From Synaphobranchus kaupii (Eukaryota > Chordata > Actinopteri > Anguilliformes > Synaphobranchidae), in the NCBI GenBank assembly GCA_029718625.1, contig CM056391.1:20249218-20313217 (forward strand): 64,000 nucleotides of DNA, given 5' to 3'. The number at the start of each line of letters is the position of its first letter. Position 1 is the first letter of the stretch. Of the stretch, positions 1 to 32,000 are shown piece by piece. The notes below the pieces were generated by a model. The model had not been told where the DNA came from. It saw only the letters and a program-made list of their open reading frames with translations, and did not search any database. Both the position numbers and the translations under genes were made by a program.

Positions 1-62
1 GTGTGTTTTGCTGCATGTTGTTGAAGGGACTAAGCAACACACTTTCTGCGTCATGACGGCAG

Positions 63-279
63 GGCCAACATCCTAGGGCACAAGGGCGAGGTGGCCGAGG
101 AGTTTGGTGCGATCATGAAGGCCTTGTGGTCGGGGCTTTACAAGTTCATCAGCCCGCGGGACTTCAAAATCACCATCGGGAAGATCAATGACCAGTTCGC
201 CAGCTACGACCAGCATGACTCCCAGGAGCTGCTGCTCTTCCTTATGGACGGACTCCACGAGGACCTCAACAAAGTAAAA

Positions 280-316
<37 letters not shown>

Positions 317-3192
317 GAGGTCTCTTTCATTGTTTCATTGGTTTGGTAGGAGAATGAGAACTGAAGACGGGGAGAGTATTTGGTGCTTTTGCAAAAATAT
401 TTTAGTTTTTATTTCCCATTGTTCATAATTTTGTGAAAGCCATTAAGAACCAAATTTGTAACTACATTGTAATGACCACATCTTTTTATCATTATAATTC
501 TTGCAGGATTAAATAAATAATCAAAAATTCTGAATAAATTCTGAAAGTAATAATAACGATTCTCAAGTTATTTTTTGCAAGTAATTTATTAATTTTGAAA
601 AGCATTTTAAAATGACCATTTTTAAAAATCTTTAGTCTTATCTTTTTATATGCCGTATTGTATGAACACAGAAAAATTGGACAAAGTTGGATCTCTAATA
701 TATAGGCCTACATATCAAAAGAAAATAACTTGAAATATGTGTATGTGAAAAACATTTCCAACATTAATACATTACTGTATAAAAAATACCTTACAAAATT
801 ATTGCCCTCATTTTTTAGAACATCAAATAAGGATTATAACAATGCCAAGGTGTTCAGTACAATGTGCAGTCAAAATGCCACAGGGTCATAAATGAGGCAC
901 TTATTGTATAAGGCCAAAAATACCCTAAAAAGTGGACTTTAATTGCAAGTTTCTCAAAAATAATTTGTGATTCAAATCTCAAATATGCGTCAAGTAGCCT
1001 CCTTACCTCAGTTGGGTAATTTTATCACCATTAACTGTACCGTGGACATTGACATGAGACATTGACATAGAGACATTGACCATAGCTATACGGTTAACTG
1101 AACAGTAGAGTAATTCTGAAATGTAATCCAATATGAGGAGGTAAATGCATGTGTCACTGTATTCATACTTGACTGCTTTTTATTATTATCCCTTCTTTTT
1201 TGGTTTACATTTTGATGGCACAATTAGAGAGTAAGTAAATTTGTCATATGATATTTATCCCCTGAAATTCTCTGTATGTGTTGAGCGTGATGTGTGTCTG
1301 TCCTGTCTGAAACGGCATCAGAAATTTCTTGCATGTGAACCCCAGAAACATTCATCATTACAGAAATCAGTGCTATGAATGACTCCCATGCAGTGCAGAG
1401 GAGTGCTGAGGTCAGCCATTTAGTGCCTTTGACGTGTTTCTCATGCTGTCCGGTTCTGAGTGGACAGGCCTGATGTGTCTAGTCTGTGATGCTATGTTTC
1501 AGTCGGCTTTTCCATCTCATGGAAACATTTCCTGCCATCTGAAGTCTAACCTGTTCATCAGGATAGATCACTGTGTTTCCTTGAGGGGTATTCCGTAGGA
1601 AAACAATTGCCAGTTGGCCTCACATGTTAATTAAAATCAATATATCAGTATCTTTTGCCTATGGGAGAAATGGTTACAGTGATATTCACTGAGTAACAAA
1701 TTGCTCCCATTAGAAAAATATTAAGAAAATTTCATTAAGATAAAAAGGGTCACTGTCAAAATTTGCCATTGAACTTTTTTTACCGGAATTATCCCCATCA
1801 TACACAGATGAATATATCTGATAAGCAACTGGTAGGTAAGATAAGGCAACTTGACTTTTGCCTTATTTGGTTTTACTTCCATGCAATTACACATTGATTC
1901 TGAAGATCTGTATGGCTAAAATGTTGCTTTATAGGAGTAATGATTGTGGTGCAGCAATGAACTTTTACCTATGGAAAGCAGTGATTAGTCTGCGTGCTTG
2001 TTTTCATGTGCTTGAGTAGTCGAAGACCTTATATACCAGTTGAAGGAATGTAGAAGCATTTGGAGTGCATTGGAATGGATTGAAATGGCATATTTGAAAA
2101 TGACAACACAGCTTGTTTTCTGCTACATGGGCATCTGCTTGGCTTCGTCCTTAGGCTGACAACCGCAAGCGGTACAAAGAGGAGGAGAACGATCATCTGG
2201 ACGACGTCAAAGCGGCGGACTTGGCCTGGAACAAACACAAGTTGCTCAATGAATCAATCATCGTGGCCTTCTTCCAGGGCCAGTTCAAGTCCACTGTGCA
2301 GTGTCTGACCTGCCACAAGAAATCGCGCACTTTCGAAACGTTCATGTACCTGTCATTACCGCTGGCTTCCACCAACAAGTGTTCCCTGCAGGTGAGTGAC
2401 GTAGTCTGAGGTAAGGCCTTGTCTCCCCTTGGTTTAACTGCATGGGACATGTTTGGTTGGCTTGATAAGGCTTTTCTCCTCAGGACTGCTTGAAGCTGTT
2501 CTCCAAAGAAGAGAGGCTTACAGGCAACAACAAGGTGTTCTGCAGACACTGCAAGACCCACAGAGATTCAACCAAGAAGCTGGAAGTCTGGAAGGTCCCT
2601 CCCATTCTGCTGGTGCACCTAAAACGGTATGAGCGCTACAGGTCTCCCTCAGCTACATCTACAGCTACAGCAAACGGGATTGTTGTTACCCTTTTTATTT
2701 GGTGTTGGTTGGTATAATGGCCTTGAATATTGGCATGAAAAATGCCACTGAGGTTGTTTTGCTGAGAAACAATGTTTTTCCCCAATGTATAAACAAAATG
2801 CTTTCCTGAAGGTTCTCCTATGAGGGACGATGGAAACAGAAGCTTCAGACATCTGTCGACTTCCCTCTTGAAAACCTGGACCTGAGTCAGTATGTTATTG
2901 GCCCAAAGCACAACTTGAAGGAATACAACCTCTATGGAGTATCTGTAAGTACACTCAAAACTGCATGTGTATGCACAAACATGCTCACTCTGTGTCTGTG
3001 AAACTAATTGTTCCCTGATTTGTTTCCAAACAGAACCACTATGGAGGTCTTGATGGAGGACATTATACCGCATATTGTAAGAACATCACAAAGCAACGCT
3101 GGTTCAAGTTTGACGACCACGAGGTGATGGAAATTTCCACGTCTACAGTCAAGTCCCCGGCTGCCTACATCTTTTTCTACTCGGCCTTGTGA
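63..3192 (+). CDS. usp8: USP8-like deubiquitinase, C-terminal catalytic part (5 exons, 5' part outside window)
   Basis: USP8 (UBPY) removes ubiquitin from endosomal cargo and ESCRT partners. I read exons 63-273, 2155-2391, 2484-2626, 2812-2944 and 3034-3192, all with AG acceptors and GT donors in matching phase (294 codons plus one leading base, stop TGA at 3190-3192). Visible protease elements are the QELLLFLMDGLHEDL box in the first exon, two zinc-ribbon cysteine pairs (CLTCHKK and CRHC), the VHLKR block, and the histidine box GGLDGGHYTAYCKN followed by WFKFDDHEV. The catalytic cysteine box lies upstream of the window. The similarity to vertebrate USP8 is close throughout, including ENLDLSQYVIGPK. 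The C-terminus ends a few residues after the FFYSAL block, a little shorter than the human tail as I remember it. The gene faces USP50, its paralogue, tail-to-tail. Confidence 0.95.
274..2154 (+). other. USP8 intron, AT-rich, no gene seen
   Basis: The 1.9-kb intron between the first two visible USP8 exons begins with GTAAAA and ends with a TTAG acceptor. Apart from the GT microsatellite at its 5' end I see no coding sequence or recognisable transposon. Confidence 0.8.
285..313 (+). repeat. (GT)n microsatellite
   Basis: About fourteen uninterrupted GT dinucleotides start 11 bases after the 5' splice site at 274. UG-rich tracts just downstream of donors can bind splicing regulators, but nothing here shows that this one does. 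Confidence 0.95.
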
Positions 3193-5480: not shown

Positions 5481-5770
5481 GGTTGAGATGTGGTGACTGC
5501 GAAGGCCACAGCATATGATTCACATAATTTTCAGACTCATCAAACCATTTCATGCCCTGTGGATGGGGGCATTGTCATCTTGGAAGAGACCACTCCCATT
5601 AGGATAGAAATGTTTCATCATAGGATGAAGTTGATCACTCAGAATGACTTTGTATTGATTTGCAGTGACCCTTCCCTCCAAGGGGACAAGTGGACCCAGT
5701 CCATGCCATGAAAATGCCCTCCACAGCATAACAGAGTCACTGATCCCTTCACTGTAGGGGTTTTTCCTTT
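5481..5770 (-). mobile_element. Tc1-type transposase relic
   Basis: The minus strand encodes the middle of a Tc1/mariner transposase (residues like LWRAFSWHGLGPLVPLEGRV and GLFQDDNAPIHRA, the latter around the second catalytic Asp). Both ends are missing. It sits within 400 bases downstream of the USP50 stop, so it may form part of that gene's 3'UTR. A second copy of the same family, also minus strand, is at 19490-19850. Confidence 0.8.
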
Positions 5771-5878
5771 TAATTTCCCCATTGTCTAAATGGCCAGCTG
5801 ACTCAGTCAGGGTCTGCGTCTGTTTTTGTGGTGGGAAGGTTGATGCCCATGTCACGTGGATGGGCTGGAAGGACTCAA

Positions 5879-8684
5879 TCACAGGCCCAGGATGCGAGGC
5901 CGGCGGAACTTATCACAGGTGTAGAGCAGGATGTAGGCACCGAGCGACTGGACAAGATGGTCCTGAACATCGCTCACTGCAGCATCGTCAAACTTGTGCC
6001 AGCTGCGGGTATGGGCATTGTGGAGGTATGCCGTGTAGTGCCCCATGTCCAAGTTGCCTGTGTGGTTCTGTTAGTTGGAAGGTACAGTGTACAGACATAA
6101 AGGAATTATATATTTTTTAGTTACTATTTAGGTTGAGCGCTGGTTTCTACACTAGGTGCTTGAACTTACCACCACGGCATACAGAGAGTATTTGCTGTGT
6201 CGGGGGGACAGGTTCGGTGAAAATGGGGTCAGGTCCAGATTCTCCAAAGGGAAGACCACATTCGTTTTCAGCTTCTTCTTGTGATTTCCTCGACATTCGA
6301 AACTGCAGATTTCACATTTTTCCGTCAATTTATTTGTCATTTCTTCAGATGCACCTTTACATACAGCATTTTCAATCTAAATGAGCAAAAATAACCAAAA
6401 TAGCCAAAGATGCATCAACAGGTTGATAAACTGTCTTCTGCAGTTTGTTAGGTGCTTCTGAGGAGCGAGTGAAAATAAAAATGCTGTAGCCAGGAAGTCT
6501 GGTATCTCCTCCTTTCAATGGTTTGGCCACAGTCAAACCCAGAGAAAGACACCGAGAGCTTGGAAACATTTCACCGGTGCGGAGACAGCCAGGCAGACAA
6601 ACAGACAGACGAAACAGCTGTGGTGCGCTGCGGTTACAGACTGCTGTGACGCGGCATAGCGTGAAAGGCCAGACGACGCGGAGGTGTACTGGCAGACGGG
6701 CGTAGCACAGTGCGGTGACATAGCTGAGATGCAGCTGTGATACAGTTCAGAATGGATATATGTCTTGGTGGGACGATAGGAAAAAATACACTAACCGCTT
6801 GAGATGCAGCACTAGTATGTCAGGGGGTTTGACCAGAGTGGTTTTCACAGCAGTGTCCTGTCTCAGTCCACACTCCGGGCACAGCCTCCGCTCGGTGTTT
6901 GTTAGAGTGCTCTGCTGGAAGAAGAGAGCCAGGCAGTCCTGCAAAAGGATTCATTCTCACATGAAACAAACCTGCCCTCTACCACTGCTGTACTGACTAG
7001 TGTTGCGTGGCACTTCAAATGAGTCATGCATATAACAAAAATATTTATGCTAATCTGCCCCCAGTATGACTGGCTTGAAATTCCTCCCTTTCTGCATCAA
7101 CTGATGGCTGCCATGCATCTCGCAGACGGGTGTTGCACGTGGCTGGTGGTTTAGGGGAGTCGACCAGCGTAAACACTTTGGATTTATTATTTTATGCCTT
7201 TATTATTTTATGAATAGTGCCTAGATATATACAGTGACAAGATTTTGAAAAAAATTTAATTCATGTTGTTTTTTACTCTCATATTTTTGATTGACAAAAA
7301 ATTGTGATGGGACCTTGTCCAGACTTTATTCTTTGTTTCCTTACACAACTGACTCTTGAATGTAAATTAAAAATTACTCATATGGATGTGTTGTTGTTAT
7401 TGTCAGGGCCTCTCGCTCTGTTCAAGAGTTACAGCAGGCCAAGAGTTTCCCATCTGAGGCAAAAACAAAATGATCTTAAATTCTCATCTTTTCACAAAAA
7501 TTATTTTGATTTTAGTTTTTTCTAAATAAAATCTGGACAAGTCCCAAGTGAATTCATAAATGAGCATAAAATTAAGAACAAGACACATCCAAACCTAGAG
7601 CTCTGTACAGCACCTGATACTAGATTACTGAGCATACAATAGCCCACACTGCATCTGAGGCTAACCGCTGCCACGGTAATGCCTTGCATACTGATGAGCT
7701 CCTGGCTGTGTTCAGAGCACGGTCACCTGGAGTGAGCACTTGATGACGTGGTTGGGGACGGGCAGGGACAGCATAGTGAAGACCTGGTTCTGCTGGATCT
7801 GATGGCTGCAGTCCATGCAGACCGTGAGGTAGCTGAGCTGGCCCTCGAACAGTTGAGTGACGATGGAGGACTCGCCTTGCAAGTCAGGAGAGTTATGGCC
7901 CTCTTGTTTGTCCTCTCTCTGTTTGATGGAAACAGTCACAGACACAGGCCCTCTTCAGAGCAAGAACTGATATTTGAAGATATTAAATGGTTTGAAGAAG
8001 CAGAGGAATTTGACTCTAACTCTTGTTACCACAGTGCAGATTGACTTTATCAGGAGCAGCAACAACAAACAAAATCCTAAATTGAATCAGGAAATGCAGT
8101 CAGGGGTGGCACTGCATACCGTTTTGAGGTCATCGTGGATGGCGTTTAGGAGGAAGAGCAGCAGCTCCTGGGCGTCCTGCTGACAGCTGTTGTCAAATTG
8201 TGGATGGAGGGTGCATACCACGTCCCTCATTTCCGATGGTGTCCAACTGTCCCGTCTAACCAGCCACACCTCCTCCACCAGCCCGAGGAAAGGACCAGCA
8301 GCCACCTGACTCTCGAGGCTGAGGAAGGGGGAGGACAAGAGGGCAGGAATTTAGAACAGGATACAGTCATAACAATACAGTGGGGTATGCTCAGCCAGAA
8401 AGCAGCACTATGAACTGATAGAGTCAAATCTGAATGGAGTTAGAAAGAGCAAACAACAAAATAAAGGAAGCATAAAGAAAAATAAAGCAGTGGTTAACCT
8501 GGATATCTTGCTTCTGTTTCGTCTATCCAGGAAGTGCTCGACCAGGGGCACTGTGCCAAGGAGGCACTGCAGAACCGCATTCATGTAGCATGAGTTCCCG
8601 CAGTTCACCAGGCCACAGAGGCCTGGACATTGAACCATACTGGCATGCCTTCTGGAGTCTTCCTCCTCCCTGATTACAGGAACA
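5879..8684 (-). CDS. usp50: USP50 protease-domain exons
   Basis: Six exons encode a compact USP domain. The cysteine box reads GLVNCGNSCYMNAVLQCL (Cys at fusion residue 460). It is followed by CQQDAQELLLFLLNAIHDDL, the cysteine pairs CMDC and CPEC, the LVLHLKR block, and the histidine box NLDMGHYTAYLHN with KFDD (His 722 and Asp 739). All three catalytic residues are present. Unusual points are Cys in place of the usual Leu in N-L-G-N and Met in place of Gly before GHY. Mammalian USP50 has been described as probably inactive, so activity here is an open question. No clear minus-strand polyadenylation signal stands out downstream. Confidence 0.93.
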
Positions 8685-10253
8685 CTGCTAATATTAGATT
8701 TTACCACTCAACACTGCAGGACATATGCATATAAAAAATATGTTAAATGACAATGTGGGGAAGGGAACAGATTTAATATTTTATAGCTGTAGATTAGATG
8801 AGATCAGAAAATATGCCAGTCATGAGAAAGAGAGATATCATAATCTTAGCCGGTAAAAAAGCATATAAAAAGGAGCGGTATGAGTTTTGAATAATTTTGT
8901 GAATACGTTTGTTGTATGTTATGATTGTCAGTTAACACAAATGCTATTAACAAGTAATAATAAAACTAACCTTGAAATAGCTGCTTTTTGGACATTAGGC
9001 TGGCTGGACAGGCTGGAGAGTAATGGTGTTGTTAGTGGAGTGGACGGCAGGTATCCCACAGCCAGCTCGGTGGCTAACCCGTAAGTAAAATCACGAAGGC
9101 TGATATGGCTGCTTGGTGCCCGCGACCGCAGCGAATACAGCACAAATGCATCAATGCACCCTAGGTGCACCACCAGCCAGAAGCCTTGCAGAAACACTGC
9201 AGATTGATGTTCAGATGTGTCCGATGCCCAAGGAAGGAGTACTGGGCCAACCCAGCCTTGGAGGTGAGCTCTTAGGAGGGCTGCAGAGTCATCCTCAGTT
9301 GCAGAATCCCCTTGCTTCTTGGAAGGGAAGCCAGAGGGAGAGGGGGGAGAAGAAAACGTCCTAACTGTGTTATCCTCTCCGGCCCACACATTTACAAACT
9401 CAAGGTTTACGCCCAGACCTGAAAATACCTGGCTTAATCTCCCCTCCATGTGGGCAGAAGAGTCCAGTTGTACATTGTAGCCCTTGTTGTAATAGGGCCT
9501 CAGAAGCCAGTGAAGGACTTGTTCCGTTACAGGTGACTTGGAGCCCTTCTGAAGCACCTCTGGGGAATACAGGAAGAAATTGCACACATACCCAGATTCC
9601 ACCTCACACAGGAGAGCCATTTTCATGTGGCATTCGGCTGGGTGGCCTTTGTATGACAAGGCGTATTTTTTCACGCACAGCAGACACCCTGGAGTGTATA
9701 ATGTCTGGAAATTCCTGGAGATTTTTCCTTGGAGATTGTAAAAGGCATCCCATTGGCCCTCTGCATTCTCATCACATCCGTTCAAATTCAGCAGGGCACT
9801 CTGTGAAAGGCTCTTCTGAAATCTCTGTCGCCATTTTTCCACTGTGGCAACCATGCCTGCAGCTTTTCTGTTCCCATCTCCAGGAATGAGTCCACCCTGC
9901 AGGGCCACTGATGTCCATGCCAAGAGGTCTGAACCTTGAACCACCTGCTTTTCTCCGTCCTGGCCGCGTGTATGGATGCTCTCAGAGGAGCAGCCATTAA
10001 CCTTCTTGCACAACTCCTTGATCACTCTTTTACCCAGTAGCTCCACAAATAACTCTTTGGCTGGCTGCCTGTGATGTGGGCCTGTTGGCCCAGATTTGAT
10101 CCTGGTAAATGTCCTCACTTTCCAGGACCTGAAGAGGTTTGGCGCACAGGAGCTGTCCCGGTCAGTAGTCACGCTCACTGGCTGCCCCTGGGGACATTCC
10201 TCCGGAGCCCACTGGCTCTCGGTGACCGCCACCGCCCATGTGTCTATCGCCAT
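5879..10253 (-). CDS. usp50: USP50-type protease with an N-terminal piggyBac-derived exon (predicted fusion, 774 aa)
   Basis: Coding exons in order of transcription are 10253-8971, 8684-8499, 8318-8120, 7918-7727, 6938-6796, 6302-6170 and 6067-5879 (stop TGA at 5881-5879). They total 2325 nt, exactly 775 codons. Every junction has GT and AG dinucleotides and compatible phase. The first ATG after an in-frame TAG is at 10253. Residues 1-427 resemble a piggyBac transposase and residues 428-774 are the USP50 protease. USP50 is a USP8 paralogue, and its place between USP8 and TRPM7 fits the vertebrate locus. The protease exons are near-certain. The join to the piggyBac exon is inferred from splice phase only. 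An alternative is two genes, with USP50 starting at its own Met (residue 444 in the fusion numbering) from a separate promoter. Confidence 0.72.
8971..10253 (-). CDS. piggyBac-transposase-derived coding exon
   Basis: One uninterrupted reading frame of 427 codons plus two bases ends in CAAG/GTTAGT, a good splice donor. I recognise the piggyBac transposase fold order. An N-terminal ELFVELLG...VIKELCKKVN block is at about residues 67-86, LYTPG with the K-G core near 185-203, CEVESGYVCNFFLYS near 216-230, LRPYYNKGYNVQLDSS near 251-266, and a late IDAFVLYSL block near 367-375. At the first catalytic Asp position (normally V-D-E) the sequence reads V-K-K, D264 fits the second, and I find no match for the third. 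The cysteine-rich C-terminal domain is absent. No piggyBac terminal repeats or TTAA pair are visible nearby. The intact frame with lost catalytic residues suggests a domesticated, non-transposing protein. Confidence 0.75.
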
Positions 10254-13049
10254 GTCATGTTCCTAAACAACTGAAGATGGAGTTGTTTGGAACCAACAAC
10301 TTTCCACAAAAAATAGAAACTCTCCCCAGCAAGCACACTCTTTAGCAAATTATTTCTGGAAGGCTTTATCATGGCAAACCTTTAGGTTCAACAGAAAGCG
10401 TGGATGGGTCATCCAACAAAGCTTCCTTCCTAACGATTGCATTAAAAAACTTCAACTGTACCCTGACAGTAAAATTCTGACAGAAGTTGTAAAAAAAATG
10501 CATGATATGATAAAGCATAGCCAACAGATCAGAAAACATGATCAACAGAAAAAAAAATCATTTTCTTTGGTGTTTTTGCTAGCACAGGCTCAAATAAAAT
10601 ACAAGTCTGGCATAAGATTCTGCTCCCAGAGGTTTGCTGCAGCAAAGGGGATAGTTTTGTGTATGCGTGTGCTTTTATATAGGAGAGATAGCTTCTTGAC
10701 AACTGTCTCTTAGCAACCTGCAAACACTGACAGCGTTTCATTAACAGCCTAATGATGCATTTACTATACTCCAGGGGTGAGCCAGCCCATTTAAAATAAC
10801 ATGTTGCAGAAGAAGAAATAATGGACTTTGTATAAAATGAGGAAGAACACACAGCCAATCATTATGAGTAGGCCTATATAGAAGTGTCTGTGTTCTGCTA
10901 TGGTTACACATTGAACAGGTGTTTCTGTGAATAGCCAATTTCGATATTCTTACTTTTTAAGGTTGTTGCATACAATCAGGTACATGTTTATCATACATAC
11001 AATCAAAATAAATTAAATTGCACGTTGTTTAACAGTAGATATCCCACTTCCTAATGCTCATACACATCTTTCCTGTCGTTTCCCCCTCTTTTATGAAACA
11101 ATAATTTTGTATTGTCTAATGGCCACACTCCGGTAACGAGCAAGCATCGAATTTCAATTCAGTTATGCAAATTATTATTTATACGACCTTATGTGAAACT
11201 TATACGTAACTAAAGTTGATTTAAAGCAAATTGCTAAACTTTGTCATTTCTCCCTCAATTCAAGCGATGGTATAGCTTGTATGGCGTGCGCACTGTGGAT
11301 CACTCTTAATCCAGACTCAGCCATTTATATAACTCCAAGTAAAAATATTCAAAGTAACACACTCGAAGTAATAAATATAATAATGTATTGTGAAATGTGT
11401 TAATATTTGATGTACCACAAGTACTTCGACGCATTTTGGTACAAGTAAAACATATTAAAGAACAAAACCCATCTGGTTAATGAAAGATCAGGCGTTGAAG
11501 ACCAAAGGTTTGATTCGTTTGTGATACGGTATTTAGTTGTATACAGAGAAAGCTCCTCCGTCGGTTTCTTTGTATTTGATATTCGACCGCTAGAGGTCAC
11601 TCTCATCATTATAAGCAAGACAAGGGATGCTTGACGCTCACATTGCTAATACAATTGTATGGAGAAATTTTTATGACTTTGCAGTATAGATGCAATACTG
11701 TATTATGGCATCATCACAATGTGTTGGATACCAGTACCCCTGAGATAATAGCAGTCTTATCTTTTGAATCCTGAATCAATATCTAAACATTTTGATTCAG
11801 AAGCTCACCTTCACTAGTTGTGATCATACAGGTCAAAGGAATAATCACAATCTGTCAGCTGTTGATTTAACCTTAAAGAATTATTACTATTACTTGTTTA
11901 ATACCACTGTCTTCATTGCAGTTTAACCCATTTTAAGGATCGGTGACCCTGTCCTGGTTTTTTTGTTTGTTTTTCTAGACTAGGCCAGTTTGTCCTGTCT
12001 GGTACACAGCCCTTTTGAAGTGTACAGTCTTTGTGTAATAGAAAATGTGAACGGTTTTGCACACAATGTTTAAAATAGTTCAGAAGTTGAGATTACAATA
12101 GATATGTATTGATTTGAAACTCCCTTGGCGAACACTTTTACCTTCAGTTTATAGACAGGCTTACAGTATCTTAAAGATAGCCTTATCACTATACTGTATA
12201 TACACTACAGGGATTCTTTTTTTAAACTCATGAAAAGACTTCAATTTTAGTTTTCTTCTTTTTACACATGATGTGGCCAATTATTTTTGCACTTCATTTT
12301 CCAACCAGAAAGCAACAAAGTGCTACTGTGCCAGTACAAAATAACTCAATACTCGCCCCATACTGTAGCAGATAACTTAAGACAATGTCTTCATTCCAGA
12401 AATGTTTCAAGTGATTATGACAGTCTCACTAAAGATGAAAGGCATGTCTCCAAAGCTAAATATAAAGGAATTTTCTCTGTGATCAACTTTTTACTAATAA
12501 TTCAAAGTTCAGAATTCACAGTTAATATATACACATACACACATACTATGTGAGAAAATGTTTTAAATAAAAACAATATCAAATGTATATTTTGGAGATG
12601 TTAGATTTGGCAAAAGACCAACCCAAAAACACATTTAAACTGTGCAAATATGCCCATAGTTTGTAGGCCACATTATTCAAATGACTGCGTTGAATTCACA
12701 TGCCGTTATATGCATTACATATAGAAGTTATATGCATCATATTTTTGTTTTCTATATGTCCCCCTAACATGTGTGTACATACAGTATACAGCAGAAATTT
12801 GTGAAACTAGTTAATAACCATTCCAGTCTAACAACATACTGGGACATTCTAACGCGGATGGCGGAACACAGAGTACATTCTTATGTTCTGCCAATGGCAG
12901 TGGCTTGGACCCTATGGAATGTGAAGGACTCCTCCAGACAAATACCACAGCGAGGGGAAGCGGACTGCCCCAGTGACAATAGGAGCATTTCCAAATGCCA
13001 GCCTCAGCTCCTTCCCACATTTTAGCGATAGAAGGTTGATTATAATGTA
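10254..13049. other. Intergenic region upstream of the USP50 fusion gene
   Basis: AT-rich DNA between the 5' end of the minus-strand USP50 gene and the TRPM7 3' end. It should contain the USP50 promoter and any noncoding first exon, but I see no TATA box or CpG-rich block that would place them. No coding sequence is recognised. Confidence 0.6.
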
Positions 13050-13956
13050 CAGATCCTTTCCAAAAAATTAGAATATCATGGAAAAGTTGTTTTTTTTCCC
13101 ATAATTCCATTCGAAAAGTGAAACTTTCATAGATTATAGATTCATTACACACAAAGTGAAATATTTCTAGCCTTTATTTGTTTCATTTTTCATAATTTTG
13201 GTTTACAGCTCCAGAAAACCCCCAAAACAGTATTTCAAGAAATTAGAATAGTGTGTCGAAAATCAGCATTTACTTCAGTTATTTCAGAGAATGAGTGGAG
13301 TGGCTTGACTCGAGGAATCCGACAGTTGTAGCCCATGTCCCGGATACGTCTGTACGTGGTGGTTTTTGAAGCACTGACTCCAGCCTCAGTCCACTCCCTC
13401 TGCATCTCCGCCAAATTTTGGAATCATCTTTGCTTGACAATCCACTGAAGCCTACGGTCATCTCTTTTGCTTGTGCACCTTCTCCTGCCACATTTTTCCC
13501 TTCCACTAAACTTTCTATTGATATGCTTGGACACTGCACTCTGTGAACAGCCAGCCACCTTTTGTGGCTTACCCATCTTCTGGAGGGTGTCAATGATGGT
13601 CTTCTGGCCAATTGTCAAGTCTGCAGTCTTCCCCATACTGAACCAAACTGAGATAAACTTTGCAGGTGTTTTGAGTAAATTAGATGATAGCGTGACACTC
13701 AGTCTAAAACATTCATTCTCTGAAATAACTGAAGTAAATGCTGATTTTCGACACACTATTCTAATTTCTTGAAATACTGTTTTGGGGGTTTTCTGGAGCT
13801 GTAAGCCAAAATTATGAAAAATGAAACAAATAAAGGCGAGAAATATTTCACTTTGTGTGTAATTAATCTATAATCTATGAAAGTTTCACTTTTTGAATGG
13901 AATTATGGAAAAAAAACAACTTTTCCATGATATTCTAATTTTTTGGAAAGGATCTG
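13050..13956 (-). mobile_element. Internally deleted Tc1-type element, N-terminal transposase half kept
   Basis: A 907-bp element flanked by TA on both sides, starting CAGATCCTTTCCAAAAAATT and ending with its reverse complement. The terminal inverted repeats extend for roughly 200 bp. The interior on the minus strand encodes the start of a Tc1-type transposase (MGKTADLTIGQK and GCSQSAVSKHINRK, the helix-turn-helix part). The catalytic C-terminal half is deleted, so it cannot move itself. It is the same family as 46165-47082. Confidence 0.85.
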
Positions 13957-15460: not shown

Positions 15461-18400
15461 TCACAGCATCAGTCGCATAGAATGCCTTTGTTCTTTGGCG
15501 CCACTTCCTGGATGAAGTGAATCCTCTGGCGGCTCATCTTGGGGTAGTGTTACTTTGTCAGGCGTGTAATCGTTGCGCTTCAGATCTGAGGTGTTTGGAA
15601 AAAGAACACGCAAGAAAATGTTTTTATAAAAATGGCCAAGAGAGGTTCCCAGGTTCTGGAATTCAATGGGAACGATTCCACAATTCAAAACAGAGACTCA
15701 AATAACTTACATTCCTTTGGAACTATTACAGTTCTTCGTGACTACACCTGCTTGCACATTTTTAGGCCAATGGCACACGGTTCTAACTGACATCATTATA
15801 TCAGTTCACTGACCGAATTACACAGTTCATATCTGTTCATAATCCAGAGAGAGTTAAACAGTTTATATTTTTATTGCATGCAATCAATTTAGCTGGATAT
15901 TTACTGAAGCAATTCAGGGTACATTGGCAGTGCCCAAACTGCAAGCCAAACCTGCAGCCTTGGAGTTGCAAGGCCACTTCTCTAACCATTATGCTACAAA
16001 ACCATTATGCTCTAACCATTATGCTACAAAAAAAAATATTGGTCAATCACCATCAGCTTGCAAATGCACTGAATGATTTTTATTTACGTTTTAATGATGA
16101 ACATGATTTTACAAATGTGCATAGTGACTTGCCTGATGTGTTGAGTGACTGTACTGTCACCTCTCAGCCTACAATCAGTGCCCATTCTGCCAGATCCATG
16201 CTCCATGAATGTGATATTAGAAAGAGCCCTGGGCCTGACATGATCACTGGCAAATGCCTTAAAGTTTTGCAGACCAGTTATGTGATATTTTTACTGATCT
16301 TTTTAACTCGTCACTTACCCAGCACAAGGTCCCGAAACTGTGGAAGGAATCTATTGTTGTACCCATGGCCAAGAACAAATCCCCAAAAGAGCTTAATGAT
16401 CTCAGGCCTGTGGCTCTGACCTCACTAGTGATGAAGACTTTTGAGCGATTGGTCAAACAAATCCTGACTGATAAGGTTCAGGGCCTGCTCGACCCGATGC
16501 AATTTGCATATCGGGTTAATAGAGGGGTGGATGATGCTACTACTACTTTATTTAATTATCTGTACAAGCATCTCGAGCATACAAAAACTCATGCAAGGCT
16601 TTTATTTGTAGATTTCTCCTCAGCTTTTAATACAATCCAACCACACATTTTAGCTAGTAAACTACTGTCCATTTTTTATCTTGATGCTGTTATGGTGAAA
16701 TATGGCAAGCCGAATGAGGATTTATTCCATATCCCTGATATCCAATTTACGGTTTCCCACTAGTTGCCCGTTTTTCTCAACGTGTTCGACATTTTGTCTT
16801 ACTAGTTCAACGAAACCATTTTGATATCAAAGATTGGCACCTTACTAGTCATGCATTTTGAGCCACTAGTTGCGCTTTTATTCTATATGTTACACCAGAA
16901 CCTTACTAGTTGCACCACAGTGCCGACTAGTGGCACCACAGCCACAACTAGTCAGCCTTTAAACCCACTAGTGGCCTTTTAAGCCTAACGTGTTGCAATT
17001 AAAGCAGCACTAGTTGACTAGTGAAGTGGCAACAGTGTAACATGTTAACTAGTTACACTACTACACTAACTATCATACTGACATTTATAGATTAAACAGT
17101 TAAATGTTTAAAGGGACTGTAAAGGTAAATCCGTACTTTGCTTCAGACTACATTATATGTGGTTGTTATGGCATGTATTAAGCATCAGCAACAGTATCAG
17201 CAACAATTTCATTGCAATATCGATCTATATCCATCTATCCATTTCCATCTATTCCGATGTGGGGATTAAATGGGTGGAGTTCAAATTATTACTGGGCTCA
17301 GTCCTATTGGGCACAGCTAGCTCTTCATGACGTCATGAAGCACCAGACGTAATGGCCAATAAATGTTTTAATGCCATTGCATATCTCCTCCCATAGTTAG
17401 AGGAAAATAAAACTATTCTGTCCCACTAACGTTAAACAGCCTATTTGAGTCTGAGCAAAACAATCGTTTGCTATAGAGAACCTTTGTCTGCGTTATCGAT
17501 AGTTTTGTAATCCTTAGCCGTAGTAATTTTGATATTTTTCAGTTCTTAATCCCTCTCCCAGTCTCTCTCCTTCAACCCGCTATTTCATTTCTCCCACCTT
17601 CTCTATCCCTTCGTGATGGTGCTACCTAGCTGTCTAGCTAGCAAGGCTACTTTAGCCCTAGAGTTAAGTTAAGAGTTATAACTTATTTGTTGTTATCGCC
17701 CCCGTTTGCATTGCAAGCATGCCGCATATACCCCGTGTATGTGCCCTCCCTGGATGCACAAACAGAGGATGAGGTCGAGGGTAAGGCTAGGTGTCATTTT
17801 TTCGGTTTCCTCAAGATGCGGAAATTCTTAAGAAATGGGTGGCGTTTTTGGAAAGCTAACATTACTGCTACAATGGCAAGCTCAGGGCAAATACCCGCTT
17901 GTGCAGCGACCATTTAACAAAACCGGACAGCTTTCAGAATTATAACAATTTGGCATGGCCAAATTCGTCAAACTTGCTGGGGTTGTGCCCTCTCTACCCT
18001 TTTCCTATCCGGGATCATCCTCTCCCTCCCCTGACGAATAGGCTACCTGTGGCCATTGCCGGGAAGATGAACCTGCTGCAACCGGCAAGTTGCTAGCTTG
18101 CACTGCTGTTAATTTACCGAAGCTGATAGGCGTAATGTTAGCTATGTTCTCAATAAATAATAGAGCAGCTAGTCTGCTGCAGTAATAATATATGTTTGAT
18201 ATAGTTGTCATTGTAATGTAGCCCACTGCTTTTCATCAGATTTTATGGACAACCTGACCTGCTGAGCTAGCTTAGTTTTGGCGGGCGGGCACAGGTGGTT
18301 ATGCTGGGGTAGCGTCAGTCATCAACACCGTAGTTTGCCAACGCTTGAGGACAAGCTGATATTGACTGTTATTTGAAGCTGATTGAAGTGAAATTACGAG

Positions 18401-21400
18401 TTGGTTACTGTACATATATGGTTGTAACGTGCACACCTCTGAACTGACACGGCATTTACTGCCGCAGAGATTAATGCCACTCCATAAAGAGCATTTCTTT
18501 TCTTTTTAAAGTTTCCGTTTCACAATTTGCGAAATTCCGTTTTTACTCCATCTGCCATTGTTTCCGACATTCCTTCATGGATATGAACGGGGATATGTAT
18601 GCTATCTAGCTAGGTTAGCTGTGGGCGTTTTCTGGACAATTGCTGCGAATATAGGAGTGGAGATAAGCACGTTCATGTGGAAAAATTTACGATTTCATCA
18701 GGACGCTCTGATTTATATTGAGAAACTGGTAGTACATGGTGTTTGGTAAATAACAGAAAAAACGTATACAGTACTAGGCTAACACATGTGAGGTGTTCTA
18801 TAGCACCGGACTTTTGGAGGCTAATGCTAACATGAGCCAGCTTGTAACCAGTCACACAATAGCCTATGCTGCTTTTGCGGCGACAAGCTAAGGAGTTATT
18901 CGGTTTCATCTCATTTTACTCTAAAAATGTCTAGGCTTTCATTATTTGCGTATCTTGATGTCAAATCCAATGTGAAACTATAGTTTTGAAGCATTTAAAC
19001 ATAATATAACAACCAAATAGTTTTTTTAGGTTATGAAACCCCAGCAAAGTTTCTCTCCAGAAACGTTAACGCAACTTTCGCAGCTGGACTTTGAAGGGTT
19101 TTTCTCAAAAATATGGTTTGATTGCATTCCAAATATAATGGGACATAACTCTTGATATTTGGATTAGACACATCATTTTGGTATCATTAGAAAGCTTACA
19201 TCCTCCTTCGGGTAGTATATAAGCCCAACATGTTACATATTTAGTGCTCGGCCGGAATGATCGGCCCACCGGAATCAATACGGAGACGGTCTATATGCCT
19301 ATCTAGCTATTCAATTTAAAAATAAAAACAACAAACTAGCATAAATGCAATGATGATTTTGATGGCAGTGAATGACATTTCACACAATGGGACACACAAT
19401 GACGTTATCTGTGCATTGGCTTTCTTTTACAATAGGCTATGGCACAGGTTCTGAAAAAGTGGCGAGATTGGAGCAGCGCTAGCCTACGGTAGAGGATATA
19501 GTACAGCTTCAATGCACCTTGGCATAGATTCTAGTCTCTGGAACTCTACTGGAGGGATGGAACACCATTCATCTGAAAGATATTCCCTCATTTGGTGTTT
19601 GGATGATAGTAGTGGAGAGCTGGCTAAAACGTCGGTCCAAAATCTCCCATAGGTGTTAATTTGGGTTGAGATGGTGACTACGAAGGCCATAGCATATAAT
19701 TCACATCATTGTCATGCTCATCAAACCATTCAGTGACCCCTCGTGTCCTGTGGATGAGGGTATTGTCATGCTGGAAGAGACCACTCCCATCAGGATAGAA
19801 ATGTTTCGTCATAGAATAAAGGTGATTACTCAGAATAACTTTGTGTAGCATAGGCCACCTTTCAATTTACCAGGGCTAATGGTGCTCAATCCCAGAAGGG
19901 GTCGTCATCCACAGGTTTACCCCAGGGGTGTGTCCTGTCCCCATTATTCCATATTCTATACACAAATGACTGCAGGTATTTACGATTACAGGCATCTCCT
20001 GAAGTTCGCAGATGACACTGTTTTAATCAGTCTGCTCCAGGACGGAGAAGTCGATCATGGGCCCGTTGTGAAAGACTTTGTAGAGTGGTGTGACAACCAC
20101 TTCCTGAAGTTAAATGTTCACAAAACTAAAGATATGGCCACCGACCTCAGGAACACCTCCCACTCAACCTTCCCAACTATAATTAAGGGCTCACTTGTTG
20201 AGACGGTTGAGTGCTACAAGTACCTGGGAACAGTGATCGACAAGAATTTGAACCATGACCTTGACACATCTGCAATCTGCAAAAAGGGCCTGGAGAGACT
20301 TCACTTTCTGCGCAGACTGAATACTTTTAATGTGGACAAGACACTGATGGCTTTATTTTATAAATCTTTTATTGAGCCCATTTTAACCTTTTGTTTAATT
20401 TCTTGGTATGGGAACTTCAAAAATCGTTTGTTTAACATTGTTAAAGTAGCCAGCAAAATAATTGGCACGCAGCAACTTTCTTTAGCAGATATCTATAACA
20501 GACAAGTTTTGCGGAAGGCACGGTCGGTCTTGGCCAGCTCTGACCACCCACTCTTGGAGGAATTAATTCTTCTCCCTTGTGGGTGGAGATATAGGTCCCC
20601 CCAGGGTAAAAAGCAATAGGTACAAATTTTCCTTTGTTCAAAGTGCAATAAATGTGCTTAATTTGCACTAAACCCTGACTGTACTGCTCAGCAGCACATT
20701 ATTATGGTAACCATTCCAATGGTCTGATATTTTTATTGAACAGATACATTCTTTTTTTTCTTTTGGTAGTTTTACTGTAATTGTTGTGATTAATGTCCCA
20801 TGTCCTCTTCATGTTGTGTTGTGTTTTTGCCCTGTACTGTAAATCAAATTTCCCCTCGAGGGACAATAAAGATCTGAACTGAACTGCCATCTGAAATAAA
20901 ACCCCACAAACAATGGAAAAACAAAACTTAATCCCAAAAATACTTACCTGGAAGTTTGAGTTTACGGCAGCAGGAATTACAGTGGTGTTTAGCGCGGAAG
21001 TTCCGTATTGCATCATCTCCCAGGTTCGCTGGTCCAAAAATCATGTCATATGATCTGCAACGGAGGGATATGGTTACCGTTTCTAGTGCAATACTGTTCT
21101 GCTCCAATACAATATTGTGCAACGTTGTCTGATGCATTTCCATTTTATTCAGTTAGATGAAATGTAAGAACATGTTCCTGAACAAGTATCCAAACTCTCC
21201 TACTTCAAAAAGGTTACAGCATACTACACTGCTAGGATTCTCTCTGGAGGCCAGTGAACCTATGAAACTCACCCCTTTTCACCACTTTTTATCACAGACG
21301 GATCAGTCAAAATCTCGCCAACACCTAAAGAAAATAAGTGTCAGTACTAAATTACTTGACGTGCACAAGTCTTACGATTTCCAATTACTATAAAGTAATT

Positions 21401-26000: not shown

Positions 26001-29000
26001 ACTTCCATTTTCACCCAGTTGCTTGAACTATACAGTCAAGCCGGAAAGTCTGCACACTCCTTTCACCTTCTCCACGTTTTATTACGTTACAGACATATTC
26101 TACAATAGATTGAGTTCATTTTTTGTCTCAAAATTCTACACAAAGTAGCCCATAATGACAAAGTGAAAACAGGTTTTTAGACATTTGTGCTAATTTATTA
26201 AAAATCTAAATGTAAAATATCATATGTACACAAGTGTGCACACCCTTTGATATGACACCCAAAAGTGAGCTGAGGTGCATTTTGTTTCCACTGATACTGC
26301 TTGAGATGTTTCTACAACTTAATTGGAGTCCACCTGTGATAAATTCAATTGATTGGACATGATTGGGGATTGCCAACACCTGCCTATATAAGGTCCCACA
26401 GTTGACAGTGCATGTCAGAGCAAACTCCAAGCCATGGGGTCAAAGGAATTATCTGCAGACCTCAGAAACAGGATTGTGTCAAGGCATAGATCTGGAGAAG
26501 GGTATGGAAAAATCTCTGCAGCTTTACAGGTCCCAAAGAGCAGAGTGGCCACCATCATTCGTAAATGGAAGAAGTTTGGAACCACCAAGAATCTTCCTAG
26601 ACCTGGCCGCCCAGCCAAACTGAGCAATCGGGGAAGACGGGCCTTGGCCAGGGAGGTAAACAGGAACCCGAGGGTCACTCTGACAGAGCTCCAGCGTATC
26701 CTTGTGGAGATGGGAGAACCTTTCAGAAGATCAACCATCCAGGCAGCACTCCACCAATCAGGCCTTTATGGTAGAGTGGCCAGACGGAAGCCCCTCCTTA
26801 GTAAAAGACACATCACAGCCCGCTTGGAGTTTGCCAAAAGGCACCTAGAGGACTCTCAAACCATGAGAATCAATATTCTCTGGTCTGATGAAACCAAAAT
26901 GTAACTTTTTGGCCTGAATACCAAGCGTCACGTCTGGAGGAAGCCAGGCACCGCTCATCACCTGGCTAATACCATCCCTACAGTGAAGCATGGCGGTGGC
27001 AGCATCATGATGTGGGGATGTTTTTCAGCAGCGGGAACGGGGCGACTAGTCCTGATAGAGGGAAAGATGAATGCAGCTAAGTACACGAGATCCTTGAAGA
27101 AAACCTGCTCCAGAGCGCTCTGAACCTCAGACTGGGGCGAAGGTTTACCTTCCAACATGACAACGACCCGAAGCACACAGCCAAGAGAACAAAGGAGTGG
27201 CTTCGGAGAAAGTCTGTGAATGTCCTTGAGTGGCCCAGCCAGAGCCCAGACCTGAATCCAATTGAACACCTGTGGAAAGAGCTGAAAATGGCTGTGTACC
27301 GACGCTCCCCATCCAACCTGACGGAGCTTGCAAGGATATGCCAAGAGGAATGGGTAAAAATATCCAGAAACAAGTGTGCCAAGCTCGTAGCTTCTTTCCC
27401 AAGACGCCTTGAAGCTGTAATCGCTGCCAAAGGTGCAGCAACCAAGTATTAGGCTAAGGGTGTGTACAGATATGTAACCGCTAAATAACCTATTTTTGTC
27501 AGTAAAATAAAATTGCATATTTTCTAAAAACCTGTTTTCACTTCGTCATTATTGGCTATTGTGTGTAGATGTTTGAGGCAAAAAATGAACTCAATCTATT
27601 GTAGTATAAGTCTGTAACGTAATAAAACGTGGAGAAGGTGAAAGGAGTGTGCAGACTTTCCGGCTTGACTGTACGTGCTAAATGGAGGTATAAAGAGACT
27701 GACCATTTCGTTGCCCTTCTTGGATGGACTGAGCCGTATGCTTTCAGCAGACACATCTTTTGATAATGATCTCTGAAGTTCAGAGTCCTCTTTGTGACCT
27801 GAGCATGAGGTAAATGGAACCCATACACAGGAGTTAGACACAGCATAAAAGACAGCGGCGCACAGCTAAATCTGTATCTGAATAAGACGCATTAGCAAAA
27901 ACAAAAGCTTTCAAATTACTTCAGTTGCCAAATTAGGGGTTGTGGAAAGTCTGTAAACACTGGAATTACAAAGCCTCCACATTTAACATGCAAAATCCAC
28001 CACCCAAAATACATAATTGCAAATGTGTTGTAGTCAATCAAGTGACTGAGATGTAACCTATCACCCAATGAAAGACAACAACCAATAACAACCAGACAGT
28101 CAGTGACAGGTTCTACTTCTAATACACGAAAGTGCAAAAGGCCATTCACTGTTCAGTCTTAGCGAGGCTATAGGCTAATGTTTCTTCCCAAACTTTCTTT
28201 TCCATCATGTAGCCCTCATCATACATCATATTCCTACCTAAAAACTTAAATTTACCCAAAAATATATTTACCCAAAAAAGATATATATTTACAAGCAAAT
28301 CTGAAACAATATACATGTAGTCTTGAGTATATTTTAAAGTATTGAATATAAAAGTACGTTGGATTCCCTGACTCTTTTCAGCCAGGCAGAGATTTTTAGC
28401 TTTGATGAGAACAGCGTGAACTTTATCTGTGCTTTTTAATGCTATAGAGCAAGCTAGCTAGTCAGACCTACTTCTTGCAGAAAATACCAAAACAACTGAA
28501 TCCAGGAACGTCAAGGAACATTTTAATAATTTACTTACAATTTATTATACTATTGTACCCATCGTGTAGTGTCTTTTTAGTTAAATCAATTTACATGATT
28601 GGAAGCGACGAGAAGATTAGAAGTTTTGGTGGAGCCTGTACTGGAGAATTTTGATGGTATAATGTGCAGGAAAATTAAAATGATTAAATCAATGAAGATG
28701 ATGAGGAAGTATGTGCAAAACTGTTGAAGTCCTGCCATTTATTGCGTGGCCATATAAAGGTTTCTGTGTTCCCCATTTCTACTTTAAGTCTGTTTACAAT
28801 ACAAAATTTATGGTGATAGTTTGCCTTAAAGAGCCGCAAAACACGCTGCAGTCTTAACAGTAGTCTGTACAACTGGGATATGGCAAATGCATTTTGTCCC
28901 AAAGCGCCTATTCTTGAAACACATTTAGAAGGCCACTGGCTGATTTGTTCAGAAACTGATTGGTTCTTTTGTTCGGGTACTGGCAAGACTTGTGGCCATG

Positions 29001-32000
29001 GAAGCTAGGGAAAATTTGCAGTAAGGAAGCGGATCCAGGTGTTACTATTATACATTAGGGGAAAAGTAATCACAACAGGTACACGAGGTGCTTTCTGAAG
29101 CCAAGTTTGTTATCGTCAAATTGTAGCTCATTTTCAGCAAGGAATTCACCCATGCTATGAAACACTTCTGTGTTATTTTTCTCCACAAAACTGCCATGGA
29201 TCCCGGCTATCCAGCTTTTTTAACGGTTTTGTCCTGTGAATCTTAAATATCTACTCTGTGCTTGAGGTTCTAGATTGAGCGTTTTGAGCAAGTGAACATG
29301 TGATAAATATCGCAATCGTGTGAGCCAGGCCACATTGTGAAGACATATGCAGAGAGGGAATTTGCTCTGAGAAAGTACATCTTTACATAATGCAGTTACA
29401 AAAACTGCCAGCACTGTGCCGCTCCAAAGCCTATGAATTTCTGGGAGTACACCTGTGGATTCAGTGACCTTCCCCTGATAAAGTTGACAGTTCACAGCAT
29501 TGTTCAGAATAGTATTGTTTCCCCTATGCTGGCTAGAATATTTTAGTAGCTTGGGAGGAGAGGTCCCATTTAATGTAAACACTAGATGTACTCCTAGTGC
29601 TAAAACCCCAAGCAAACCATGCCGCTTTGTCAGGGGCTGTAGCTTCGTTTCGAATGGAACTCTGGGATGCGTAGTATGAAAATGAACTGTTGTGACCACC
29701 AGTCACCACAGATGTCACCATATCCACCAAAACTGAGAAATTATGGATTACAGCTTTAACAGAAAATCATCACATGAAAATCATCAGATTGTGTGGGGAA
29801 ATAAAGCAGGTGGTGATGAGGAGGGGAGGAGTGGCGAAAGAGAATTTCAGACATGATCTGTTCACCAATTGAATGTGGTCATCTGTACCCAAGCACCCTG
29901 TTCTCCAAACTCAAACCTGGGGATCCGGCTGCCGTTTGCAGCCTGTGCAGCCTTCCTTTACAACTCTGCCTAAGCACTGAGGTCCTTCGCTGGGCGCCAA
30001 TCTCAGTGCGGCGCTCGCTCTCCTGGCCGCTGTAGCTCTCCATGGGTCGGACTGCTGAGGCCAGCTCACAACCCGGAAGGGGGCTGTTTCTCTGCACCTC
30101 ATTCTCGAGCCCGGGTTTCGAAAGAGCCCGCCTTGAGGTTTGAGCTCCGCATTCCCTGCCACGGTCGGTAACAATCTCTGCGCTAACTTCATCATGGCAA
30201 AAGGCCTGATTGACATACCCGCCCCTCTCAGCAGAAGCAGGCAAGAAACGGGACCCAGAATATCTAGGCATCTCTGCCACAGCGACAATAGCAGGATAAC
30301 AGCACATAGTGTCCTCGTACTTACCGACAAACGCCCCAAATTCTACAACGGAGCTTTCGGGCAGGATGTCCTGGGGCCCTCCAGGAGAGGGCCCACGAGG
30401 GCTTGAGCCACCGGGCTGAGAAGGGGAGCTGACAAAAAACTTTGCAGCTGGAGGGGGGACACTTGGTAGACTGCTGGGTGAGTCAGCGCACTGGGAGTCT
30501 TGTGGACGGGGCACGTGCCTCTCCATAAAGGAGTGGCCCTTCGGCCGGAGTTCGGGGGGGGAAATGGCACTTTGGGTTAAGGCACTACCCGAGGAACCAG
30601 CCTCTGGAATGTTCGCAGCTCTCCTCTCGGGGCTCAGAGTGTTGTCCAGGCCGTACCTCCGGCCGACCACGTCCTGGGCCCTGCTGCCAAACAAGGAGTC
30701 TGCGATGTTGCCTCCGCCCTGTGGGAAAGAAGACCCAAAGTGCGCCCCGAAGCTGCGCTTCACCAGCACTGAGGACTTGGACTGGGACCCGATGTCCACC
30801 AGGTTGGGCCCCAGGTTCTTGGAGATGCTGAGCTCCCGGGTGATCTCGTTGTGAACCTTGCTGGCCTCGGACGCCCTCTGCGCGGTGAGTGCTTTCAGCG
30901 TGTCCACCGTCAGCGCCGACAGGTCCTGCAGGTGGCCGATCTGAGAGTCCAGGGTATGAAGGGAGCGCTTTATGAAGTTCACCCTGTTGCCGACTTCCTT
31001 CAGCTGTATGCACATGGTCTCAACCCTGCGCAGGATGTGAAGGAGGCGGAGGGGGTTATTATTTATGTTGATGTTTTCAATCATCAGATGAACTCAACAT
31101 TCAACTGTATTGTGATAGGTATACAAAAATCTTTAAAATGTGTTCTTTAAAAAAAATTCATAAAATAAAAAAATAGATAATAAATTTTAAAAAGATTTTC
31201 AAAAGCATGAGATGTTAACAGTGGTTTTCATATCGTTTTACAGATGATCCTTTGTTCTTTTAATAAATATTTTTCTACATTCAAAGGGAACTACATTTTC
31301 TACAAAGGGAACTACATGGTTTTTATAGTAGAAATAGGAAAGATGAGGTTCAGTGCATAGAAAATAATGAAGGAACTCATAAGAATACAGATATTCCCTA
31401 AACTTATTTTGTTGGGAGGTTCAAAAGTGGTTATAAACATGCCTGCAAGTGCATCCAAAATCCAGGATGTTTTACAAGATATTGAGATAAGGGATGATAA
31501 AGTATGAGAAAATTACAAAAATGTAAGACAAATAGGGCTGCAGGCCCTGATGGCATATATCCAAGAGGACTGAAAAAAATAAGGGAGATTATATCTAAAC
31601 CACTTAAAAGTATTTCTCTCTAAAAAGTTGGCTGGAAGCAATGCAGTAGTATAAAGAAATATAAGAAGAGGAACTGTACTGATTCAGAAAAAAGCAGGCC
31701 CATTAGTATAACATGAATGTCTATCACAAGGGACAAGCTAGAATTAATCATGGAAAAAAACAGCATCGTACTCCAGGATTAGACAAGATGGACTGAATTG
31801 CCTGTTCTGACCAAACATAGTTATATTTTTATTTTCTGCTGTGGATATATCCAAAAGGGGACGTAATGTGGAAATTAAAATGTGGCACACCTGTCCGAGG
31901 TGACCCTAATTCTCTCCTCACTCCCAGAGTGGAACTGGTCATCCTTTTCATGGAAGTACGTTTCCACGCACTGCTCTTCAAAGTCATGGAGCTTTTTTTG

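What the first reader, a model, noticed from the sequence alone, without database searches (positions are those of the whole stretch)
5879..10253. Predicted piggyBac-transposase / USP50 fusion protein
Seen: a 1283-nt open frame of piggyBac character on the minus strand ends in a good donor (CAAG/GTTAGT at 8971). The next acceptor upstream of the USP50 cysteine box (AG/TGTTCC at 8684) is in exactly the complementary phase. The seven exons sum to 775 full codons. Known: transposase-host fusions such as CSB-PGBD3 exist, and USP50 sits between USP8 and TRPM7. Inference: a DNA-binding transposase module has been captured as the N-terminus of a deubiquitinase, which could direct ubiquitin removal to specific DNA or chromatin sites. 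I know of no such fusion described for USP50.
Basis: partly seen in the sequence, partly recalled or inferred. Interest (0 to 1): 0.9.

Follow-up and report, generated by a model that had tools for sequence, protein, structure and literature searches.

The report
Ancient fish piggyBac–USP50 fusion gene
In ray-finned fishes, a dead jumping-gene enzyme appears to have been built into the front of a ubiquitin-removing enzyme, and the joined gene is found from sturgeon to perch-like fish.

Summary
On the minus strand a 1283-nt piggyBac-type exon (10253-8971) is in splice phase with six USP50 exons. One correction: the acceptor is more likely 8669 than 8684; with 8669 the model equals a public Synaphobranchus kaupii protein, 769 of 769 residues, so the window is that cutthroat eel. 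The fusion is not private to the eel. All 22 named-species proteins found, from sturgeon, gar, eels, shads and spiny-rayed fishes, carry a USP domain behind this module (3 models hold only part of it); Pfam's piggyBac model is reached in 19 of 22. Trees of the two halves share their well-supported groups: inherited as one unit, by recalled dates for roughly 350 million years. The transposase half looks dead: the first catalytic Asp is Lys/Arg in 20 of 20 covered sequences. The USP half keeps Cys/His/Asp-Asp in 20 of 20 covered, whereas human USP50 is classed as a pseudo-enzyme. Most likely the module is a non-catalytic docking or dimerising domain. No transcript evidence was available. Nine paper searches found no description of it.

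The parts
8971..10253 (-). Exon 1: piggyBac-derived module (427 codons + 2 nt), ATG at 10253, donor GTTAGT
   Evidence: PF13843 E 2.2e-9; fold neighbours piggyBac/piggyBat; tblastn of Anguilla, gar, sturgeon and shad proteins covers it from residue 1
8499..8669 (-).
   Evidence: model with 8669 equals P0008; catalytic Cys present in 22 of 22
8120..8318 (-). Exon 3 (USP domain, QQDAQE)
7727..7918 (-). Exon 4 (USP domain)
6796..6938 (-). Exon 5 (USP domain)
6170..6302 (-). Exon 6 (USP domain)
5879..6067 (-). Exon 7 (USP His box GHYTA, FDD acid pair, stop)
10672..10681 (-). TATA-like TATATAAAAG about 420 nt before the ATG; possible own promoter, unproven
   Evidence: a single motif found by eye, may be chance
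34..3186 (+). C-terminal exons of USP8, tail to tail with USP50
   Evidence: (USP8 E 1e-36 for 34-354) and tblastn pieces up to 3186
29882..31093 (-). Open frame with a TRPM7 exon (residues 16-100 of 404 match), the neighbour on the far side
   Evidence: TRPM7 E 1.7e-33

Best explanation
One gene, conserved across ray-finned fishes, codes for a protein of about 770 residues. An intronless piggyBac-type transposase ORF was captured as the 5' coding exon of USP50 in or before the common ancestor of sturgeons, gar and teleosts. Shown from sequence: the in-frame exon chain in the window, the same join in the predicted proteins of 22 species, matching well-supported groups in the trees, loss of the first transposase catalytic residue, intact USP catalytic residues, and the place between USP8 and TRPM7. 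Inferred: the two halves are translated together from one spliced message, and the dead module is a non-catalytic docking or dimerising domain that decides where USP50 acts and on what, while the USP half removes or binds ubiquitin. I put docking on protein partners at about 0.5 and docking on DNA or chromatin at about 0.3.
For: Public S. kaupii model identical to the window's exons. UCH in 22 of 22 named-species proteins and PF13843 at E <= 0.01 in 19 of 22. Module and USP trees of 19 of the 22 share the starred groups (Aldrovandia,(Synaphobranchus,Anguilla)), (Coilia,Alosa) and spiny-rayed fishes with Lampris then Centroberyx outside the rest. The module's amino-acid distance is 0.8 to 2.5 times that of the USP half over 16 chosen pairs, above 1 in 14 of them. 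Four module ORFs without organism names (P0001, P0002, P0006, P0007) and the window all read R-F/L-V at the exon end, as a phase-2 AG/GTT(N)GT donor would encode, and then differ. 6 of 22 proteins have no Met between the module and the catalytic Cys, so there an ATG-started USP50 needs an upstream exon. First catalytic Asp to K/R in 20 of 20 covered; USP Cys in 22 of 22, His and Asp-Asp in 20 of 20 covered.
Against: No RNA read or cDNA was seen; the fusion proteins are gene predictions as far as I could tell. Three models lack part of the module (Albula, Caranx, Salarias), Fundulus lacks the N-terminus, and Acipenser and Siniperca lack the USP end; missing exons and prediction faults cannot be told apart. 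PDB sequence matches to piggyBat are weak (E 0.018, 0.33 and 0.76), in the range of unrelated chains in the same lists. The models have low confidence (mean pLDDT 45.3 and 46.2), Foldseek TM-scores to piggyBac/piggyBat are only 0.30-0.35. The module evolves faster than the USP half in most pairs.
Confidence: 0.8

Rival explanations
1. The module still binds DNA or chromatin and tethers USP50 to specific sites.
For: piggyBac origin. Human USP50 is described as chromatin-associated and acting at replication forks (PMC11405836, abstract and passages). Second catalytic-site Asp kept in 20 of 22. The RNase H part is mildly basic (mean +3.1, 18 of 22 sequences). PGBD5, also degraded, is the subject of a 2025 preprint titled as interacting with piggyBac-like elements (PMC12324416, title and start of abstract in a listing).
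Against: No cysteine cluster in the linker before the USP domain, and mean module charge near zero. An earlier paper reports that PGBD5 does not appear to bind DNA or chromatin (PMC3902484, passages).
Confidence: 0.3
2. Two separate genes, an intronless domesticated piggyBac gene and USP50, wrongly joined by gene predictors.
For: Only predictions are available; gene predictors can join neighbours (recalled).
Against: No shared stop at the module's end: reading past the exon gives differing residues in the five ORFs compared, while the donor-like codons are kept. The join is predicted in 22 species. 6 of 22 have no Met for an independent USP50 start in the linker. Apart from the four organism-less ORFs, no hit was a module without a USP domain.
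Confidence: 0.08
3. Alternative first exons: the fusion is one isoform, and a plain USP50 is also made from another first exon or from a Met in exon 2.
For: A Met lies 16 residues before the catalytic Cys in 4 of 22 (Synaphobranchus, Anguilla, Albula, Periophthalmus). Three records are named isoform X2 (Lepisosteus, Siniperca, Channa), so other isoforms are predicted.
Against: That Met is absent at this place in the other 18. It does not exclude the fusion, only its being the sole product.
Confidence: 0.3

Closest known systems
CSB-PGBD3
   Same: A piggyBac transposase joined by splicing to a host nuclear protein and kept (PMC3459987, start of abstract; PMC3902484, passages)
   Different: There CSB exons 1-5 are spliced to a downstream transposase, over 43 million years old, in higher primates, with a single D to N change and kept TIR binding. 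Here the transposase part is N-terminal, far older, without the first Asp, and joined to a deubiquitinase
PGBD5
   Same: Very old domesticated piggyBac protein that lost 3 of 4 catalytic aspartates, with no mobile ancestor identified (PMC3902484, abstract and passages)
   Different: PGBD5's transposase part is encoded by seven exons and is its own gene; here the module is one exon and part of another protein
Human USP50
   Different: Human catalytic Cys is residue 53, leaving no room for a 430-residue module, and human USP50 is classed as lacking conserved acidic residues (PMC11405836, passages; the same paper notes that some reports claim activity). The fish proteins keep Cys, His and Asp-Asp
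piggyBac / piggyBat transposases (6x67, 9c0f)
   Different: First catalytic Asp lost, no C-terminal Cys-rich domain seen, region after the core (290-340) variable in length

Membership tests
piggyBac transposase superfamily (descent) | DDE_Tnp_1_7 (PF13843) homology | tested here: met
   E 2.2e-9 for the window exon; 4.5e-18 in sturgeon, profile 2-214; 19 of 22 members at E <= 0.01, of which Brachyistius is under Pfam's cut-off (20.3 against 22.4 bits)
piggyBac transposase superfamily (descent) | RNase H-like fold in a piggyBac-type surround | tested here: met
   Blocks of residues 191-290 at mean pLDDT 66-88 apart from 201-210 at 47; 6x67 and 9c0f are the top two in Foldseek and in VIA-align; the surround itself is modelled below pLDDT 50
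Active piggyBac transposase | Catalytic DDD(D) | tested here: not met
   First Asp is K in 18 and R in 2 of 20 covered sequences; second Asp kept in 20 of 22. Third Asp: by eye against a recalled motif it falls on a Gly present in 21 of 21 covered
Active piggyBac transposase | C-terminal Cys-rich TIR-binding domain | tested here: inconclusive
   Linker 401-442 holds 0-4 Cys, one in 9 of 18 sequences; no conserved cluster seen; not modelled separately
Active piggyBac transposon | Terminal inverted repeats around the ORF | tested here: inconclusive
   None of the 3 inverted pairs found frames 8971-10253; after such an age none would be expected
Host-transposase fusion gene | One open frame joining host and transposase domains through splicing, conserved between species | tested here: met
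   on gene models
Host-transposase fusion gene | Fusion transcript observed | not testable with these tools
   No RNA data held
USP (C19) deubiquitinase | UCH domain with Cys, His and Asp/Asn catalytic residues | tested here: met
   UCH in 22 of 22; Cys in 22 of 22, His and Asp-Asp in 20 of 20 covered; aligned with USP8
USP (C19) deubiquitinase | Enzymatic activity on ubiquitin | not testable with these tools
   needs an assay
USP50 orthologue | Between USP8 and TRPM7 | tested here: met
   in the window only; not checked in the other species

The most novel reading that the evidence does not exclude
Ray-finned fishes have for some 350 million years run a transposase-guided deubiquitinase: the piggyBac fold holds USP50, which unlike the human protein may still cut ubiquitin, at particular DNA sites or chromatin such as stalled replication forks.
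Probability: 0.25. Interest if true: 0.88.

Novelty: new variant of a known kind. Interest (0 to 1): 0.64.

Why it matters
Transposase capture by host genes is known mostly from tetrapods and often from DNA-binding partners (recalled). A fusion with a deubiquitinase, shared by sturgeon, gar and teleosts, would be among the oldest host-transposase fusions and would show that the captured fold can outlive its catalytic site. It also suggests that USP50 may be an active enzyme in fishes while the human one is classed as a pseudo-enzyme, and gives a natural handle on what USP50 docks to.

Tried and rejected
Chance open frame: judged unlikely. Species-private or broken insertion: rejected. Independent neighbouring gene: judged unlikely. 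dN/dS: not done, because no DNA of relatives was in hand; amino-acid distances of both halves were compared instead. A mobile or unfused relative: none among the hits beside four ORFs without organism names, but these scored only 4482, 6173 and 7986 candidates, so absence in tetrapods, sharks, zebrafish or salmon is not shown. Other copies in the own genome: the genome search did not complete; no second copy in the window. Full-length fold: low confidence, domain arrangement not interpreted. PDB structural neighbours from rank 3 on are integrases and other folds, taken as the common core or noise.

Literature: nine searches of the open library. No paper holds both USP50 and piggyBac or both USP50 and transposase. 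The other listings showed nothing on this fusion by title or start of abstract, but three of them were cut (25 of 145, 15 of 110 and 15 of 65 papers shown). In PMC12062965, a screen for transposon domains joined to host domains, the main text has no match for USP, UCH or deubiquitin; its supplements were not seen. Most subscription papers are not held; a survey of transposase capture in tetrapods (Science 2021, recalled) was not held.

Full report
WHAT IS THERE. The minus strand of the window carries a seven-exon gene. Exon 1 (10253-8971) is one 1283-nt open piece ending in CAAG/GTTAGT in phase 2; six further exons code a USP domain down to a stop at 5879. With 8669 the translation is identical, 769 of 769 residues, to database protein P0008 of Synaphobranchus kaupii, which names the source of the window, and the Anguilla rostrata model joins at the same residue. 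Both acceptors are possible; 8669 is better supported. Independent tblastn with Anguilla, gar and shad proteins finds the same exons. The neighbours are USP8 on the plus strand, tail to tail, and TRPM7, so this is the USP50 locus.

IT IS CONSERVED. Three database searches gave 26 proteins. Twenty-two come from named ray-finned fishes: Synaphobranchus, Anguilla, Aldrovandia, Albula, Lepisosteus, Acipenser, Coilia, Alosa, Siniperca, Brachyistius, Enoplosus, Centroberyx, Scatophagus, Channa, Notolabrus, Lampris, Periophthalmus, Betta, Fundulus, Menidia, Caranx and Salarias. All 22 hold a UCH domain; 19 of 22 reach PF13843 at E <= 0.01. Albula, Caranx and Salarias models hold only part of the module, Fundulus lacks its start, and Acipenser and Siniperca lack the USP end. 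The other four (P0001, P0002, P0006, P0007, no organism given) are module ORFs that appear to run past the exon end. In those four and in the window the residues just past the exon read R-F/L-V, which is what a phase-2 AG/GTTTGT or AG/GTTAGT donor would encode, and then differ. This supports the splice site without a gene model; for the four it is read from protein letters. No shared stop closes the module.

ONE GENE, ONE HISTORY. Trees of the module and of the USP half, from 19 of the 22 proteins, recover the same well-supported groups: (Aldrovandia,(Synaphobranchus,Anguilla)), (Coilia,Alosa), and spiny-rayed fishes with Lampris and then Centroberyx outside the rest. Lepisosteus and Acipenser lie together in the module tree; the USP tree leaves them open, and branching within the percomorphs is mostly unresolved in both. 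Presence in sturgeon, gar and teleosts dates the fusion to their common ancestor or earlier, about 350 million years by recalled dates. Amino-acid distance in the module is 0.8 to 2.5 times that in the USP half over 16 chosen pairs, above 1 in 14, so the module is constrained but usually less so. In 6 of 22 proteins there is no Met between the module and the catalytic Cys.

WHAT IT PROBABLY DOES. The transposase site looks dead. A PDB alignment of a sturgeon piece sets its Arg against the Asp of piggyBat SLDEG, weakly on its own (E 0.76); that this Asp is the first catalytic one is recalled. The column is Lys in 18 and Arg in 2 of 20 covered sequences. The second Asp stays in 20 of 22. By eye, against a recalled motif, the third falls on a Gly found in 21 of 21 covered. 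No Cys cluster like the piggyBac Cys-rich domain is visible before the USP domain, and the module's net charge averages +1.9 over its 400 columns, range -4 to +17, in 18 of 22 sequences. The USP half keeps its Cys in 22 of 22 and its His and Asp-Asp in 20 of 20 covered. Human USP50 is described as lacking conserved acidic residues, as chromatin-associated, and as suppressing replication stress without its catalytic Cys and His, though the authors note reports of activity (PMC11405836, abstract and passages). Its catalytic Cys is residue 53, so it has no such module. The likeliest reading is a docking or dimerising module on a possibly active deubiquitinase. Docking on DNA is possible, but nothing here shows it. 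PGBD5 cuts both ways: a 2013 paper says it does not appear to bind DNA or chromatin (PMC3902484, passages), while a 2025 preprint title says it can interact with piggyBac-like elements (PMC12324416, listing only).

NOVELTY. Host-transposase fusions are a known kind (CSB-PGBD3, SETMAR; named in PMC12062965, passage). This domain pair, its age and its spread were not found in nine searches of the open library, three of whose listings were cut. The proteins exist in databases under names such as 'uncharacterized', 'hypothetical', 'inactive ubiquitin carboxyl-terminal hydrolase 50' or other USP names.

LIMITS. No transcript evidence, no DNA of relatives, no answer from the own-genome search, shallow alignments for folding, synteny checked in the window only, and no proof of absence outside ray-finned fishes.

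Noticed in passing
window 26392-26904 (+): N-terminal part of a Tc1/Sleeping Beauty-type transposase (HTH_SB 5.5e-26, HTH_Tnp_Tc3_2 6.9e-23).
   Followed up: partly
window 13140-13867 and 46255-46737: Repeated translated stretch (IHYTQS..KTVFQEI) in opposite orientations at 13140-13331 and 13424-13867 and again near 46255; looks like ends of a Tc1-like element by eye. No Pfam hit for the one stretch tested (13427-13867).
   Followed up: partly
window 5553-5909 (-): Tc1-like fragment by eye (QDDNAPIHRA) directly downstream of the USP50 stop; no Pfam hit.
   Followed up: partly
window 15787-16763 and 19849-20619 (+): Pieces that look like a LINE reverse transcriptase; for the second, RVT_1 E 9.7e-6, below the curated cut-off; the part of the first that was tested (15787-16416) had no Pfam hit.
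   Followed up: partly
fish USP50 proteins in alignment A4: USP catalytic residues intact in fishes (20 of 20 covered), while human USP50 is reported to lack conserved acidic residues; loss of activity may be specific to the mammalian or tetrapod line.
   Followed up: partly
P0008 residues 1-45: An N-terminal pattern (W15, E19, C20, C36, F41) that is invariant in the 14-sequence alignment A1 and of unknown role.
   Followed up: no
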